From Armatimonadota bacterium (GTDB lineage Bacteria > Armatimonadota > DTGP01 > JAKQQT01): DNA of 64,000 nucleotides. This document shows positions 3,822 through 58,905 of this stretch, in pieces. The first letter of the stretch is position 1; each line of letters opens with the position of its first letter. The position numbers and the translations under genes were made by a program. The DNA is taken from NCBI GenBank assembly GCA_036504095.1, contig DASXVS010000007.1, forward strand, positions 1 to 64,000. Reading direction: 5' to 3'. Below the pieces are notes generated by a model. That model was not told the DNA's origin and searched no databases. It saw nothing but the letters and a program-made list of their open reading frames with translations.

Positions 3822-4703
3822 TCACCCCACGATCTCCCGCACGATCCGCAGGAAACGCGGGAGTACGGGCGAAGTTTCGTCCGCGCGGTAGGTGACGCTG
3901 AGATCGACCGTCGGGACGGGCGGCGCGAGCGGGCGGTATACCACACCCTCGCGGTGGAGGTTCCGGGCCGCCGCGGGCACAAGGGCGATCCCGATGCCGG
4001 CCGCAACGAGGCTGACGGCTGTCTGGAGTTCCCCCGTCTCCTGCACTACGCGTGGCGGGACGCCGGACTGCGTGCAGAGTTCCAGAATGAACTCGGCATA
4101 GCGGGAGTCGCGCCGGTGCGGGAACAGGATGATCGGTTGCGATGCGATCTCCGCCAGCGAGACGGAATCCTGGCGGGCAAGGGGATGCAGCGAGGGAAGC
4201 GCGCCCATCAACGGCTCGTTCATCACGCTCTCCAGCACGATCCCACCCTCCGCCACCCCCAGGCGGGAGAAGCCGACGTGAATTCGCCGCTCGCGCAGGG
4301 CCTGGTTCTGGTCGCGGCCCAGAATTTCCATCAATTCCAGCTCCACGTCCGGGTACCGCTCCCGGAACTCGCGCAGGATCTCCGGCAGGTGGCTGTAGAT
4401 CGCCGATGACACAAACCCGATGCCCAGCCAGCCGGCTTCACCACGCCCCACGCGTCGCGCCCGCTCGCCGGCCCGGTCTACACGATCGAGGATGTCCTGC
4501 GTATCGGTCAGGAATGCCTTGCCCGCGTCCGTGAGCTGAACGCGGCGGCTGGTCCGCGCGAACAGCGGCGTTCCAATTTCGCTCTCCAGTTGGCGGATCT
4601 GCTGGCTCAACGGTGGCTGCGCCATGAACAGGCGCTTCGCCGCGCGACCGAAGTGCAACTCCTCCGCCACGGCCAGGAAATAGCGCAAGTGCCTCAGCTC
4701 CAT
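3822..4703 (-). CDS. LysR-family transcriptional regulator
   Basis: A 293-residue protein of normal family length. Residues 1-60 form the winged helix-turn-helix (MELRHLRYFLAVAEELHFGR, then AAKRLFMAQPPLSQQIRQLE), resembling the BenM/CatM/AlsR branch; the rest is the periplasmic-binding-protein-like effector domain. It is transcribed divergently from the MFS transporter at 4833 and lies upstream of hdrCBA on the same strand. LysR proteins usually control the divergent neighbour, so the exporter is the likeliest target, with the dyad at 4726-4749 as candidate operator; control of hdr is also possible. SD is AGGAGGTC (plus-strand gacctcct at 4712-4719) just before the ATG. Confidence 0.93.
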   Translation of the reverse strand: MELRHLRYFLAVAEELHFGRAAKRLFMAQPPLSQQIRQLESEIGTPLFARTSRRVQLTDAGKAFLTDTQDILDRVDRAGERARRVGRGEAGWLGIGFVSSAIYSHLPEILREFRERYPDVELELMEILGRDQNQALRERRIHVGFSRLGVAEGGIVLESVMNEPLMGALPSLHPLARQDSVSLAEIASQPIILFPHRRDSRYAEFILELCTQSGVPPRVVQETGELQTAVSLVAAGIGIALVPAAARNLHREGVVYRPLAPPVPTVDLSVTYRADETSPVLPRFLRIVREIVG

Positions 4704-4749: not shown

Positions 4750-4832
4750 GACGTATCAGTGAGCGCGACGGATCATGAGTATAGGCATGCGCGGGTTTCG
4801 ATACGCCGCGCCGGACGGAACGGAGTCACAGA

Positions 4833-6077
4833 TTGAGAGAAGAAGCAGGCGTTGCCGTGCTCTCGCGCCCCGCGGCGCGGAGCGCGAGGATCGAAACAAG
4901 AGAGGCGGTGGAACGGGATCGGCTCACGACCCCGCTGCTCGTCACGATGGCTGCGGCGTGCGCGCTTGGCATCGCCAACCTCAATTACAGCCAGCCTCTG
5001 CTCGGTCAGATGCAGCGCAGTCTGCACACGTCCATCCGGGCCGTCGGCTCGCTTCCGATGCTGACGCAAGTGGGATTCGCGGTCGGCGTTCTCTTCCTGG
5101 CGCCCCTGGGCGATATCCTCGAACGCCGCCGGCTCATCCTTGCGATGCTGGCCCTCGTGACGATCTCACTGGCGGCCGCCGCCCTGGCACCAAGCCTGCC
5201 GTTTCTCTGCGGAGCCAGCCTCGCCATCGGCGTCACCAGCGTCATCTCGACGCTCGTCCTGCCTTTCGCCGTTTACCTGTCGCAACCGGATCAGCGCGGG
5301 CGGACGGTGGGAACCATCGCGGCTTCCATGCTCATCGGCCTCCTGTTGTCCCGCACTATCAGCGGGATAGTCGGGCAGGCGTTCGGCTGGCGTGTGATGT
5401 ACGGCGTGGCCGCGGGCACGATGATCGTGCTCGCTCTTGTGTTGAAGGCGCTGCTGCCACGGAGCCGGCCCGCCTCGGCGATGTCCTACGGCTCGCTCAT
5501 CCGGTCAACGCTTGGGCATATCCGCACGGAACCCGTCTTGCGCGCGGCGACCCTCAACGGGATGCTCCTCTACGCTGCGTTATGTGCGTTCTGGGCAACG
5601 CTGGTCTTCCTGGTCGAAAGCCCTTCGTACCGCATGGGATCGGCTCAGGCCGGGTTGTTCGGTCTGCTGGGCGCCATCAGCGCGCTGGCGGCTCCGTTTG
5701 TCGGCCGCCTGGCCGACCGGCATAGCCCCCGCATGCTCGTGGGCGTCGCGTCGCTCGTGATGCTGGCAGGCTTCGTGTTCCTGGCGGTCGCCGGCGCCCA
5801 CCTTGCCGGGCTTCTGGCGGGAATCGTCCTCCTCGACGTCGGCGCCCAGTCCGCCACGATCTCCAACCAGGCGAGTGTGTACAGCCTTGCCGAGGAAGCG
5901 CACAGTCGTCTCTACACGGTCTATCGCGCAGGCTACTCGCTGGGCGGGTCCGTTGGCGCGTTTCTGGGAGTGTACGCCTGGAGCATCCGGCAATGGGCCG
6001 GCGTGTGCGCTGTCGGGATCTCCCTGGTGACGGTCGCGTTGCTCGTTCATCTCCGTACCAGCCGGGCACAGCGGTAA
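4833..6077 (+). CDS. MFS transporter (drug/aromatic efflux type)
   Basis: A hydrophobic protein of up to 414 residues with about 12 predicted membrane helices. The loop between helices 2 and 3 contains GDILERRRLI, a form of the MFS signature motif GxxxDRxGRR. The start is uncertain: the TTG at 4833 has no clear Shine-Dalgarno, while a GTG at 4908 (VERDRLTTPL) comes just before the first membrane helix, as is usual in this family. It is divergent from a LysR regulator, a common arrangement for inducible exporters. The substrate cannot be read from sequence. It ends about 30 bp from the convergent HEAT-repeat gene. Confidence 0.88.
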   Translation: MREEAGVAVLSRPAARSARIETREAVERDRLTTPLLVTMAAACALGIANLNYSQPLLGQMQRSLHTSIRAVGSLPMLTQVGFAVGVLFLAPLGDILERRRLILAMLALVTISLAAAALAPSLPFLCGASLAIGVTSVISTLVLPFAVYLSQPDQRGRTVGTIAASMLIGLLLSRTISGIVGQAFGWRVMYGVAAGTMIVLALVLKALLPRSRPASAMSYGSLIRSTLGHIRTEPVLRAATLNGMLLYAALCAFWATLVFLVESPSYRMGSAQAGLFGLLGAISALAAPFVGRLADRHSPRMLVGVASLVMLAGFVFLAVAGAHLAGLLAGIVLLDVGAQSATISNQASVYSLAEEAHSRLYTVYRAGYSLGGSVGAFLGVYAWSIRQWAGVCAVGISLVTVALLVHLRTSRAQR

Positions 6078-22954: not shown

Positions 22955-23090
22955 GTTCCGAGTTCCGAGGTCCGCGGCCCGAAACTTGGAACTCGGAACT
23001 CGGAACTGAAGCCACGAGCGATGAACTGTGAGTGTGCGGTCCGGAATTCATCGTTCATCGCTCCGCGTTCATCGCTTCCTCGCCTTCAGT
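22955..23090 (+). repeat. Heptanucleotide repeat hairpins after the AAA+ gene
   Basis: Starting two bases after the stop codon, GTTCCGAGTTCCGAGGTCC (22955-22973) pairs with GGAACTCGGAACTCGGAAC (22988-23006): 19 bp with one mismatch and a 14-nt loop, built of 7-bp units. A second set follows: GAGCGATGAAC (23016-23026) is complementary to GTTCATCGCTC (23053-23063), and 23050-23090 reads as ATCGTTC, ATCGCTC, CGCGTTC, ATCGCTT, CCTCGCC. Both probably act as terminators or mRNA 3' structures. A short ACCC-N5-GGGT element follows near 23107. Confidence 0.8.
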
Positions 23091-44840: not shown

Positions 44841-44904
44841 AATACCCGAACGTGCTGGGCAAACGTGGAGCGCCGTCTCATACGACGCGGTGAAAGGAAT
44901 CGCC

Positions 44905-47900
44905 GTGAAGACAGTAGATTTCGCCGAACGCAAGTTCGCTCCCCCCCCCCCCTCCGCCTGCTTGCTGTACTTAGCATCGTGGGCCTTCTCTCCGTAGACG
45001 CCCCCGCCACACCCCCCACACCGTGGCAAGGCTCTGACCTTCCCACGCCATACACCACCGTGAACACTCTAACGGGTTCTGCCTGCACGGCTGTGCCCCT
45101 CGCTGGTTGGAAGGGCCGCGGTTTGTCAGTGGCCCTCGCATATTTCCACAACGACTCGCCCTACACTGGAACGCCGGAATGGCGCCACTCCTACGATTAC
45201 CAACTGCTTCCGCTGGAAGACGACGGATGGCGCCTCGTTGAACCGAACGGCCTCACGAAGGATTTCACTTACGCAGACGGTTTCGTCGAGGTAGCAGGAT
45301 ACTTCGATAAGCTCTATATCTCGGCGAACTATTCAAATGCACTCTCGGAGCTGACTGTCGAGAGAAAGAACGGCACGCGCCTCATCTTTGCCTCCCTGGA
45401 CCCTGCTGCGGAAGATCCCATTGGGCCGGATACACCGATTGGCGTCGAAAGTGAGGACCCGCCTCTCCTATTACGCCAGATAGTGGATCGGAACGGGAAC
45501 GCCATCACCCTTCATTACGGGACTGGATCCTACGCGGCGAGGCTGAATCAGGTAACAGACCCTACCGGCCGGAACCTTAACTTCAGCTACAACGGCGCAA
45601 CCACCACCATTACTGACCCATCTGGGCAGACCTGGACCGTTAGCCGCGGGAGCGCGGCGGAAATCACCAGCATCGTCAACACCCCGGCCACAACGTCGCC
45701 GGCCACAAGCCCGTCCAGCAGAACGTTTAGCTTCACTTATAACACCAACCACACCATCGCCGCGATGCGGGACTGGAAGACCAACGCCACCCGCACTGGT
45801 CAAAACGCAAGCGACACAACCTACTCCTATACCTATAATTCGGGAGTCATTTCCCGTGTTGACGGGCCGAGCTGGCTAACGGCCAACGAACGGCCTGCCA
45901 CGGCATATTCCTTCAGCGGAAATCCGCAGACGACAACCATCGGCCAGAAAACGGGCTACACCGGCAGCGCTGATACTTTCAGCACCACAACGCAGCTTTA
46001 CCTTACAACAGGGGAATTGGGCACGGTAACGAAGTGGATGGGCTCCAGCAGCAGCCAGAACGATCCACACACCGATTACACATATACCGACAACCACCTT
46101 CCGGCAGGAATGGCACGGTCAACAGGAGGCGAAGTTAACATTGACTACGTCGATACGTCAACAGGCGACATTTCCAAAGTCTATCCGATGGGCACTGTCA
46201 ATGGAATTACGTATACATATTCCGACGCAAATAACCCTCACCTTCCGACGCTCGTAAACGACATGTGGGGGTGGGGCACAATCTACAAATACGATCCTTG
46301 CGGTAACTTGACCGATGTCTGGGATGCGAACCACACCGCACAGGCGCCGGATCCGGCAGATGATGCCGATCCCGATTTGACCCGCCTGCACACACACTAC
46401 AAGGTGGATTCGCACGGGCAGATTTTCGCGGCATCCAACACTGCCGTGAGGGCATACACGTTGAACAGCCAGGACACTGACGCCGATCCCATGCCCAATC
46501 AGTGGCGATACCACTACGATAGCCATGGGAATCTGGATAAGGTGTGGCGGCCGAATGGCACGCCATCTGGGACTTGGTATTCCACGACTACGCCGGACCA
46601 GACGGCTCACTACATTTCAGCCCTATCGCGTCGTGACTGGTCCAAGAAATCCTCGACCGATGCGCAGGTCAACTTTCACTACGATGGATACGAACGTCTG
46701 AAGGGGATTGACATCGATAACACGGCGGGCGATGAGATCACATATTCGTATGATGAGAACCATTTGCTCGCCGGGATGGTCGATCCGACGGGAGCCACGT
46801 CTTGGACGCTGGACGCCCTGAACCGCGTCACGCAGGAAGGCAAAGACAGCGGTACTCTGGGCTGGACCTACCGTGCCGATGGCCAGCTCAACACGTTCAC
46901 CAATCGCGACAACGTCACCACAGCGTTCACTTATACCGATGGTGGTCTGCTGGACACGGCAACGGGTCCGTGGGGCACAGGCAATCCCGTTGAATTCCTG
47001 CACCGCGAATGTGCGTGCAGCGGTAATGTTGACGGAGTAAACTACCCGGGTGATCCTGGTATTGCATGGCGCAACGCCGCCGATGCCTACGGTGGGTCGC
47101 ACGGAGGCATCTATTACGAACGGGATAGCAATCCTCAGCACGAATACAATGCAGCGATCGACCCCCAACTGTTCTGGGAGAAGATACATACGCTGACTCT
47201 GAACGAATTTGGGCAGGATCCATCTGCCGTCAAGATGATTCAGAGCAGCGGACCGGACAACCTCTCACGTGTCGAGATGTTCAGTGACACCGTCGATCCG
47301 CTTCATCGAACTACGGACGACGAAGTCTCATACGTGACATACTTCGATCCTCAGAACCCGGAGACCCAGACGCTGGGCGACGCTATCAGTACCCGATCCT
47401 ATACGTTCGACGACACCGGCAGTCCCGGCAACCGTTACCAAGTCCGGAACGCCGGCAATTCCTTGCTGGAGACATACTCCTTCGATTCCCTTGGGCGCAA
47501 CCGGCTGGACACTGTGGCGTACCCAGATTATGTTACCGACTACTACTCATATGACGCCGCCGGCAACGTAAGCGACGTATACTCAACCCCTAGTGTCGGC
47601 GACCGAATCTACACGTCCGATGCTTTGAACCACCTGGCATCCATCCAAGCCCCTGATGCTCCCGGCTACGGGCGCGTACAGTTCGTATTCGACGGTTTGG
47701 GGCGGCTTGCTCAGGTCAAAGACGATTACGGTACCCTCATTGGTCGATTCTACTATGCGGGTAACCGCCTGGTGTATCAGGACGACGGCCAGAACTACAC
47801 TTCAGTCTCGTACCAGTGGGCAGGCGGCAGGCTCCTGTCGCAGCAGCAAAACAGCGCCATCTTCTGGTACTTGCTGGACACTCGCGGCGACGTCGTTGCG

Positions 47901-48737
47901 TTAGTCGATGCTTCTAATAATCTCGCGGCGCATTACGTGTACGACGCATTCGGGCAGGAACTTCAGGACAGTTTCGAAGGCGACGAGATCCTGGTCCCCA
48001 ACCCCCTCCGGTATCGCGGAAACATCGGCTACATGCAGGTCTTCCAGTCTTCAGAAGGTCCGGCTTTCTCCCTCTATAATGTCGGCGCCCGCACCTACCA
48101 TACCGGCACCGGGCGGTGGATGCAGGAAGATCCCCTTCTTGGCTTCCAGTCTGATCCTCTCTCGTTCAACCGATACCTGTATTGCAACGCTGATCCAGTC
48201 TTGGCATCAGACCCAAGCGGACTTGCGCCATTCAATTATGGAATGGCGCCAAGTTGCTTTGGTTCATTCGTCCCCTGCAACCCAAATGACCCGGCTGATC
48301 AACCACCAGGATGGTGGGGGTACGTGGGGGCCGGCGCGGGTGTTTCCATCGGCGCTTACGGATTAGGAATGCTCGGCATTTCCGCGGCTGCGGCCGCGGC
48401 CGGCACAGGCGGCGCGGTTGAGACTGCAACAACGGCGGGAACCTCTGCAGGGGGTTATATGGGTTTGGGTAGCCTTATCACCGGAGTCGGCACCGAAATT
48501 GCGGCGGCGTTCGACAAAAAGTCCAATGAGCTCTTCTGCGCGATGGTGGACGCGGTCGCCAGGGCCATGATACTCGGTGACAAGTTGCCTAAGAACCTAG
48601 TGTTTCCTAATATCGTCGCGTTCGGTTTCTTGCGTTGTTGTGTTCGCGTGGCCCCAGAGTGCCTATCGAAGACCGCTTCGTGGCATATGGCGGAACGAGG
48701 AAGGGCAGAGAGCGCCGAACTCACTGCCCTTCCATAG
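44905..48737 (+). CDS. RHS/YD-repeat protein, start separated from the body by a C12 tract (phase-variable or miscounted)
   Basis: About 1277 residues if in frame. The best start is GTG at 44905 (MKTVDFAERKFA), with AAAGGA six bases upstream. It runs into twelve Cs (44941-44952); in this sequence the frame then ends at a TAG near 44997. Adding one C (or removing two) gives PPPPLRLLAVLSIVGLLSV, a good signal peptide, and the long RHS frame. The alternative GTG at 44865 has no Shine-Dalgarno. The body has YD repeats (YHYDSHGNLDKVW, YSYDENHLLAGMVDPTG), the RHS core ending (GARTYHTGTGRWMQEDPLLG, NRYLYCNADPVLASDPSGL), then a Gly/Ala-rich hydrophobic region and a ~100-residue C-terminal tip I do not recognise. 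Such tips are often toxins. Confidence 0.8.
44941..44952 (+). repeat. Poly-C tract (12 C) in the RHS signal-peptide region
   Basis: The longest homopolymer in the window. 13 or 10 Cs would join the SD-equipped start to the RHS frame; 12 does not. Confidence 0.9.
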
Positions 48738-48943
48738 CCTAACATATCCCAGATGGGTTTTCGTCAGGTGCTCGTTGGCCCGGTCGTTGTGTGGAGGGGC
48801 GCAGTGGAAGCGCTCAACCACGGCAGGCTGACAAGATTCCGACACGCCCGAGGGGAGCGTATTTCGCCTACAGAGCGGGCGTGCTTCAAGCCTTTTTTGC
48901 CTTCACGGTTTTCATGCCATTTGATCGGTTGGAGGTATTGGCA

Positions 48944-49237
48944 ATGCCGTACATCATCGTTAGTGTTGTATACGCAATCCTTGCGTACGTTGGAGGGCTC
49001 GCCGCAGTCAAAATGAATCGGCCACGCGCTTCGGGAATCTTCATGGCGATCTGGCAAGGGAGCTGTGTCTTCTTGGTCGTGTGCGCCGTAGAGATGGTGA
49101 CGGAGTCACCGCGTACCGGCTGGAATCTCCAGACCGCAATCCACGCTGTGGCTATCGTATGGGTCATTGCAACATTGCTCGGATTGCTTACCGCATGCGG
49201 AATGAGCATTCTTTGGCGCATCCGAACCACTCGATGA
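48944..49237 (+). CDS. Small three-helix membrane protein, candidate immunity protein
   Basis: A 97-residue protein starting at the ATG with TTGGAGG eight bases upstream. Three hydrophobic segments are visible: IIVSVVYAILAYVGGLAAV, IFMAIWQGSCVFLVVCAVEM and AVAIVWVIATLLGLLTACGM. It lies 200 bp behind the RHS gene, the place where polymorphic-toxin systems encode an immunity protein; for a membrane-acting toxin, a small polytopic protein would suit. The link is positional only. The frame extends to 48791 but without SD. Confidence 0.65.
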   Translation: MPYIIVSVVYAILAYVGGLAAVKMNRPRASGIFMAIWQGSCVFLVVCAVEMVTESPRTGWNLQTAIHAVAIVWVIATLLGLLTACGMSILWRIRTTR

Positions 49238-50083: not shown

Positions 50084-50088
50084 GCTCC

Positions 50089-50144
50089 GGAACTCGGAAC
50101 TCGGAACTCGGAACCCGTCACCCGTCACCCGTCACCCGTCACCT
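50089..50144 (+). repeat. Eight consecutive heptamers (GGAACTC/GTCACCC)
   Basis: GGAACTC three times, GGAACCC, GTCACCC three times, GTCACCT: exactly 56 bp, starting six bases after the MBL stop and ending five bases before the ATG of the next gene. Two different repeat words are joined without losing the 7-bp register. Confidence 0.9.
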
Positions 50145-58695: not shown

Positions 58696-58779
58696 GGGTT
58701 CGAGCCCCGAGTGTCCCAACTCGGAACCCGGGAACCGGAACTCGGAACTCGGAACTCGGAGCCCGGAACTCGGACCTCG
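58696..58779. repeat. Twelve consecutive heptamers between convergent genes
   Basis: GGGTTCG, AGCCCCG, AGTGTCC, CAACTCG, GAACCCG, GGAACCG, GAACTCG three times, GAGCCCG, GAACTCG, GACCTCG, all in one register, seven bases after the beta-helix stop. The left part is partly complementary to the right part. The longest array in the window. Confidence 0.88.
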
Positions 58780-58905
58780 GTGATTCCTTCCGGCAGTTGG
58801 GGAACGCATTCTCAAGCCCGAGGCACAGAAAAAGGGGCGCGTTGAGACACGACCCGACACACGGATTCGTGGTGTACACCCAACCGACGCCCCTGTTCAT
58901 CTGAT

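What the first reader, a model, noticed from the sequence alone, without database searches (positions are those of the whole stretch)
44905..45000. C12 tract places the RHS gene out of frame with its only good start
The GTG at 44905 with AAAGGA leads into 12 Cs; at 13 or 10 Cs translation enters a textbook signal peptide and the 1277-residue RHS protein, at 12 it stops within 31 codons. Established: poly-C/G tracts in surface-protein genes switch expression by slipped-strand mispairing (Neisseria, Campylobacter). Inference: this population is phase OFF. Alternative: homopolymer miscount in a consensus assembly.
Basis: partly seen in the sequence, partly recalled or inferred. Interest (0 to 1): 0.75.

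Follow-up and report, generated by a model that had tools for sequence, protein, structure and literature searches.

The report
Poly-C ON/OFF switch in an RHS gene
A run of 12 Cs inside the secretion signal of a giant RHS surface protein in an Armatimonadota bacterium leaves the gene out of frame, and similar G- or C-runs sit at the same place in RHS genes of its relatives, most of them also out of frame, which points to an unrecorded random ON/OFF switch for RHS secretion in these free-living bacteria.

Summary
C12 lies at 44941-44952. From GTG 44905 (AAAGGA) the 12-C frame stops after 30 codons; 10 or 13 Cs enter a Sec-type signal peptide and a 1276/1277-residue RHS protein (TIGR03696, PF05593). 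The tract is not chance. The 4.68-Mb genome has only eight C/G tracts of 10 or more; three lie in signal peptides: this gene and two RHS-type 5' ends. The sibling genome G001 has a fourth (C10, out of frame).
In other Armatimonadota, 20 RHS 5' ends share one layout: Shine-Dalgarno, start, signal peptide, Arg-Gly-Gly, G8-G12, TAAA. Three are in frame, 8 are off by one and 9 by two. Two genomes share a 3.1-kb identical RHS block whose only difference is G11 versus G8. Pairs that include OFF genes keep purifying selection downstream (dN/dS 0.17-0.20). This argues against decay, fixed-direction frameshifting and a one-off miscount. The best reading is slipped-strand phase variation gating RHS secretion, assembled OFF here.
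A miscount of this one tract cannot be excluded without reads. The mechanism class is known; the RHS signal-peptide setting and the phylum appear new.

The parts
44893..44898 (+). Shine-Dalgarno-like AAAGGA, 6 nt before the GTG
44905..44907 (+). GTG start codon of the phase-variable gene (inferred start)
   Evidence: only start with a Shine-Dalgarno that leads into the signal peptide (in frame at 10 or 13 Cs)
44941..44952 (+). C12 homopolymer tract (the switch), translated as poly-Pro in the signal-peptide n-region
44953..45008 (+). hydrophobic core and c-region of the Sec-type signal peptide (LRLLAVLSIVGLLSVDAPA; its first Leu codon begins with the last C of the tract), read after 44905 only in the ON frame
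   Evidence: translation; recognised by eye, no signal-peptide predictor available
44995..44997 (+). TAG that ends the 30-residue OFF product at C12
45009..48737 (+). mature RHS/YD-repeat protein, open through 48734, stop at 48735-48737
   Evidence: PF05593, TIGR03696
46749..46853 (+). RHS repeat, PF05593 best stretch (residues 629-663 of the 44865 ORF)
47940..48224 (+). RHS-associated core domain, TIGR03696 (residues 1026-1120 of the 44865 ORF); variable C-terminal tail follows to 48734
44865..44867 (+). alternative in-frame GTG that a gene caller would choose at C12; judged unlikely
   Evidence: no Shine-Dalgarno, Arg-rich leader

Best explanation
The C12 tract is a contingency (phase-variation) switch. 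Slipped-strand mispairing at replication adds or removes Cs. When the count is 1 mod 3 (10, 13), translation from GTG 44905 runs through the signal peptide into the RHS protein, which is then secreted. At the other counts, 12 included, translation ends within about 30 codons and no secreted RHS is made. The assembled consensus is OFF. It belongs to a wider arrangement in Armatimonadota in which a poly-C or poly-G tract in, or at the end of, the signal peptide gates RHS secretion cell by cell. Shown: sequence, frames, recurrence, length difference in identical DNA, purifying selection on OFF genes. Inferred: the slippage mechanism, secretion, and any benefit (probably varying a large cell-surface or inter-cell effector against phage, predators or competitors).
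For: Tract and frames exact. Eight C/G tracts of 10 or more in 4.68 Mb; three are in signal peptides: this gene, C56 (C13, MRYPFALAFGMAAFCC-APPPP-ALAGP..., ON) and C72 (C11, MKRHVVWYPLAAIAATLF-APPP-AVAGP..., ON). Sibling genome G001 has C10 in MQFKPLPLAISLVAVTLITPPP of a homologous gene, OFF; its ON frame is at least 625 aa with a DNRLRE domain. An RHS search not selected for tracts gave 29 loci; 8 of 10 tracts of 8 or more lie within 250 nt of the frame's 5' end, p = 6e-8. GGGGGGGGTAAAD occurs 54 times against 16 for the reversed control; in the two richest families 22 against 1, and 20 of those 22 are RHS 5' ends. Frame states of the 20: 3 ON, 8 and 9 in the two OFF frames. L193 versus L194: no substitution over 3.08 kb, only G11 versus G8, while 170 substitutions lie in the flank. 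dN/dS of an OFF/OFF and an OFF/ON pair 0.20 and 0.17 at dS 0.94 and 0.62. The complete genome AP024673.1 carries one ON (G9) and one OFF (G11) copy.
Against: No reads, so no mixture shown in one population. The G11/G8 difference is 3 nt and leaves both alleles OFF. Most genomes are MAGs, whose homopolymer counts can err by one. The window gene has no close orthologue, so neither its own length variation nor its dN/dS could be measured. ON is rarer than one third (3 of 20), which could partly reflect decay. No sigma-70 promoter was found upstream of the window gene.
Confidence: 0.82

Rival explanations
1. Assembly miscount: the real tract is uniformly C13 and the gene is always in frame.
For: C12 is one base from the ON length; the source is an 80-contig assembly. 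A published parallel: an annotated G11 proved to be 37% G11 and 59% G12 in the population (PMC9187656).
Against: Independent assemblies give OFF in 17 of 20 related genes, in both wrong frames and with different lengths. One-off miscounts do not explain why such rare tracts sit at this one place in RHS genes.
Confidence: 0.1
2. Translation starts at GTG 44865, in frame at C12, so the gene is simply ON.
For: The frame is open from 44865 and leads into the same hydrophobic core.
Against: No Shine-Dalgarno; the leader is a 26-residue Arg-rich stretch typical of an out-of-frame reading of the ribosome-binding region; relatives start with a Shine-Dalgarno shortly before a compact signal peptide.
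Confidence: 0.06
3. Programmed ribosomal frameshifting or transcriptional slippage on the tract makes the full protein constitutively.
For: Tracts followed directly by a stop in the zero frame (GGG GGG TAA) resemble recoding sites; homopolymers are slippery.
Against: A fixed-direction shift needs one frame offset; relatives show offsets 0, +1 and +2 (3, 8, 9 of 20) and lengths of 8 to 13. Heterogeneous transcriptional slippage could work at any length and is not excluded as leaky background expression.
Confidence: 0.06
4. The gene is a decaying pseudogene; the tract is an ordinary frameshift.
For: The genome holds RHS 5' fragments (C56, C72) and 3' fragments (C26, C69).
Against: More than 1240 codons remain open after the tract. 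Related OFF genes show dN/dS of 0.17-0.20. Decay does not place frameshifts repeatedly at a homopolymer in the signal peptide.
Confidence: 0.05

Closest known systems
Bifidobacterium breve sortase-pilus G-tract switch (PMC9187656)
   Same: Intragenic G10-G12 tract, replication slippage, ON/OFF surface structure, consensus differing from the population
   Different: Pilus gene of a gut commensal; here an RHS protein of free-living Armatimonadota, with the tract in or right after the signal peptide
Homopolymer contingency loci of Neisseria and Campylobacter surface genes (from general knowledge; phasome paper PMC5953494 listed, not read)
   Same: Poly-G/C near the 5' end of surface-protein genes, frame-dependent expression
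   Different: Host-associated pathogens and commensals; no RHS example was found in my searches
Homopolymeric tracts as a general regulator in prokaryotes (PMC2831843)
   Same: The general proposal that tracts in coding genes act by frameshift
   Different: Only the start of the abstract was seen; a genome-wide proposal rather than a conserved gene-specific module
RHS/YD-repeat polymorphic toxins
   Same: RHS repeats and RHS-associated core, variable C-terminus
   Different: Sec-type signal peptide with a tract switch; no toxin domain recognised in the C-terminus and no immunity gene identified

Membership tests
Homopolymer phase-variable (contingency) locus | Long G/C tract in the 5' coding region, beyond chance | tested here: met
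Homopolymer phase-variable (contingency) locus | Length changes switch between full ORF and early stop | tested here: met
   for the window gene; for relatives
Homopolymer phase-variable (contingency) locus | Tract length differs between otherwise near-identical alleles | tested here: met
   L193/L194 G11 vs G8 in 3.08 kb without substitution; not testable for the window gene itself (no close orthologue)
Homopolymer phase-variable (contingency) locus | Both ON and OFF states occur | tested here: met
   3 ON / 17 OFF among 20 poly-G loci; poly-C loci: 2 ON / 2 OFF
Homopolymer phase-variable (contingency) locus | Mixture of lengths within one population and reversible expression | not testable with these tools
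   needs reads or culture
RHS / YD-repeat protein | RHS repeats and RHS-associated core domain above curated cut-offs | tested here: met
   PF05593 29.1 bits vs 22; TIGR03696 50.3 vs 32.5
RHS polymorphic toxin with immunity gene | Recognisable C-terminal toxin domain plus adjacent immunity gene | tested here: inconclusive
   No Pfam toxin domain in the C-terminus; the next ORF (48791-49237) has no Pfam match
Programmed frameshift gene | One conserved frame offset across homologues | tested here: not met
   offsets 0/+1/+2 = 3/8/9

The most novel reading that the evidence does not exclude
Armatimonadota, a phylum of mostly free-living and hot-spring bacteria, carry a module in which the end of the RHS signal peptide is itself a mutable G/C tract (Arg-Gly-Gly or poly-Pro, with a stop waiting in other frames). 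Each cell then secretes a random subset of its RHS repertoire, most copies being OFF at a time. The window genome also has homopolymer spacers in promoters of a paralogous secreted-TPR gene family (TTGACA-N7-G9-TATAAT).
Probability: 0.6. Interest if true: 0.72.

Novelty: new variant of a known kind. Interest (0 to 1): 0.64.

Why it matters
Phase variation is mostly studied in host-associated pathogens and commensals, where immune evasion is the usual explanation. A conserved tract switch on RHS proteins in free-living, largely uncultured, partly thermophilic bacteria suggests another driver (phage, predators, kin competition). It also means that standard annotation mis-starts or truncates many of these genes. 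It can be tested directly from existing metagenome reads by counting tract lengths.

Tried and rejected
A genome-contig scan with the whole window RHS found no relative. A signal-peptide/tract DNA pattern (CCCCCCCCYGCNNTNGCNGGNCC) found only the two known copies plus apparently unrelated one-mismatch hits. Plasmid records held only distant RHS proteins, about 23-25% identity in the rows listed. The RHS fragments on C26 and C69 are 3' remnants without a usable 5' end. A homologue in G234 (L259) has the signal peptide but no tract, so the tract is not universal in this subfamily. L193/L194 could not give a useful dN/dS: only 2 differences in 956 codons, because the block was recently exchanged. 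Literature: no paper in the held library joins Armatimonadota (or Armatimonadetes) and phase variation. Two papers joining RHS with phase-variation terms were searched for RHS and did not describe an RHS switch.

Full report
OBSERVATION. The window holds C12 at 44941-44952, shortly after a GTG (44905) that is preceded by AAAGGA. Read at 12 Cs the product stops after 30 codons at TAG 44995-44997; at 10 or 13 Cs it continues for 1276 or 1277 residues. The protein passes the curated cut-offs of PF05593 (RHS repeat) and TIGR03696 (RHS-associated core). The only in-frame alternative, GTG 44865, gives 1290 aa but has no Shine-Dalgarno and an Arg-rich leader.

MORE THAN CHANCE. C/G runs in the window decay about 5-fold per base, so about 0.1 runs of 12 or more would be expected in the whole genome (my extrapolation); four exist. 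The genome has 48 C/G runs of 8 or more and eight of 10 or more, and no A or T run of 10.

THE OTHER LONG TRACTS OF THE GENOME. (i) C56:557-569, C13, inside a signal peptide (MRYPFALAFGMAAFCCAPPPPALAGP) of an RHS-type N-terminal domain, in frame, ORF ending after 169 aa. (ii) C72:4815, C11, inside MKRHVVWYPLAAIAATLFAPPPAVAGP, in frame, where the RHS-type start is followed after a few codons by a type IV pilin-like gene, apparently a recombination remnant. (iii) C22 and C67: G11, G11 and G12 on the coding strand, about 90 nt upstream of paralogous secreted TPR-like genes (MRFHLGLF...); a fourth member on C43 has TTGACA-AGCAGGC-G9-TATAAT, a 16-nt promoter spacer made mostly of the tract. The two C67 copies have the same 60 bases before the tract and near-identical sequence after it, but differ G11/G12. 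(iv) C19, C16, intergenic; (v) C54, C10. RHS fragments on C26 and C69 are 3' pieces only.

SAME FAMILY. In G001, the only other genome of the same family in the search, a homologue of the C56 gene has C10 in its signal peptide (MQFKPLPLAISLVAVTLITPPP...). It is out of frame; the ON frame runs at least 625 aa to the contig end and holds a DNRLRE domain. A more distant homologue in G234 has the signal peptide without a tract. So four poly-C RHS-type 5' ends are known in this family: two ON, two OFF.

ACROSS THE PHYLUM. A search with the window RHS N-terminus, blind to tracts, gave 29 loci in other genomes. Of the ten C/G tracts of 8 or more in 91,880 bases, eight lie within 250 nt of the 5' end of the RHS frame (7.9% of the sequence; binomial p = 6e-8). 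Six share one design: Shine-Dalgarno, start, signal peptide, then ...RGG encoded by G8-G12, then TAAA. The word GGGGGGGGTAAAD occurs 54 times in 291 genomes against 16 for the reversed control; in families f4 and f33 it is 22 against 1, and 20 of the 22 are RHS 5' ends. Of these 20, three are in frame, eight have one base too many and nine two. When OFF, the product is the signal peptide plus RGG[G] and an immediate or early stop. Named records place them in Armatimonadota (Fimbriimonadales KatS3mg016/018, Chthonomonadia Ch118, HRbin15/16, JP3_11). Some copies are likely not independent: they sit in the same genome or are ends of one repeat, so the counts are of loci, not events. The named-genome set was found with a query built from tract-bearing genes and is biased towards them. 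One non-Armatimonadota RHS gene (L254, Hydrogenedentota) also has G11 right after a signal peptide, out of frame; most RHS loci of other phyla had none, though many starts may not be visible.

TRACT CHANGES FASTER THAN THE REST. L193 (KatS3mg016) and L194 (JP3_11) are identical over 3.08 kb that include the signal peptide and most of the RHS gene, except for G11 versus G8, whereas the 1.9 kb upstream hold 170 substitutions. The block was probably exchanged recently; since then the tract changed and nothing else did. This is the strongest sign of hypermutability, with the caveat that the change is 3 nt and both alleles are OFF. The complete genome AP024673.1 has one ON (G9) and one OFF (G11) RHS gene.

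OFF IS NOT DEAD. For L154/L149 (G8 and G10, both OFF) dN/dS of the RHS frame is 0.20 at dS 0.94; for L161/L158 (OFF/ON) 0.17 at dS 0.62. Selection therefore acts on a frame that the assembled sequence cannot translate from its start, which fits genes that are switched back ON.

MECHANISM. Slipped-strand mispairing on the tract changes the frame from signal peptide to RHS, so the switch decides whether the RHS protein is made and exported. Programmed frameshifting with one direction is not compatible with three offsets. A single miscount cannot explain the recurrence, but it could still be true for this one C12. Slippage, export and benefit are inferred. A published case with the same logic is the Bifidobacterium breve pilus G-tract, where the annotated G11 was 37% G11 and 59% G12 in cells (PMC9187656).

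NOVELTY. Homopolymer phase variation is well known, and tracts in coding genes have been proposed as a general regulator (PMC2831843, abstract start only). I found no paper on phase variation in Armatimonadota and none describing an RHS gene switched by a signal-peptide tract; the library holds open-licence papers only. I rate it a new variant of a known kind.

Noticed in passing
L066 (G000:C43) + strand 4267-4275; L013 and L010 (G000:C67, C22): A paralogous family of secreted TPR-like genes (MRFHLGLF.../MQSRLGRF...) has G9-G12 between TTGACA and the gene; on C43 the tract fills most of a 16-nt TTGACA/TATAAT spacer. Copies differ in tract length (G9, G11, G11, G12): a likely second, promoter-type phase-variable family.
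   Followed up: partly
L014/L052 (G000:C72) about 4760-5600: Signal peptide plus start of an RHS-type gene (with C11) is fused in frame to a type IV pilin-like gene ([31 protein letters not shown]): recombination just downstream of the tract.
   Followed up: partly
L009 (G000:C19:51788-51803): C16, the longest tract of the genome, is intergenic, 137 nt before a secreted TPR-like 394-aa ORF.
   Followed up: no
L254 (Hydrogenedentota JACPGD010000291.1) 362-372: G11 directly after a signal peptide of a 1690-aa RHS frame, out of frame: the arrangement may extend beyond Armatimonadota.
   Followed up: partly
L193 versus L194, 1865-4943: About 3.1 kb around an RHS gene is identical between two genomes that differ by 170 substitutions in the adjacent 1.9 kb: recent exchange of an RHS gene.
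   Followed up: partly
L153, L163, L166: Orphan RHS 5' cassettes with intact signal peptide and G9-G10 tract but only 63-67 codons after it.
   Followed up: no
window 50088-50143, 58718-58780, 22955-23007: Perfect or near-perfect 7-bp tandem repeats (CGGAACT, ACCCGTC, AACTCGG).
   Followed up: no
L168 residues 42-89 after the tract: A dockerin type I domain lies near the N-terminus of a poly-G RHS protein.
   Followed up: no
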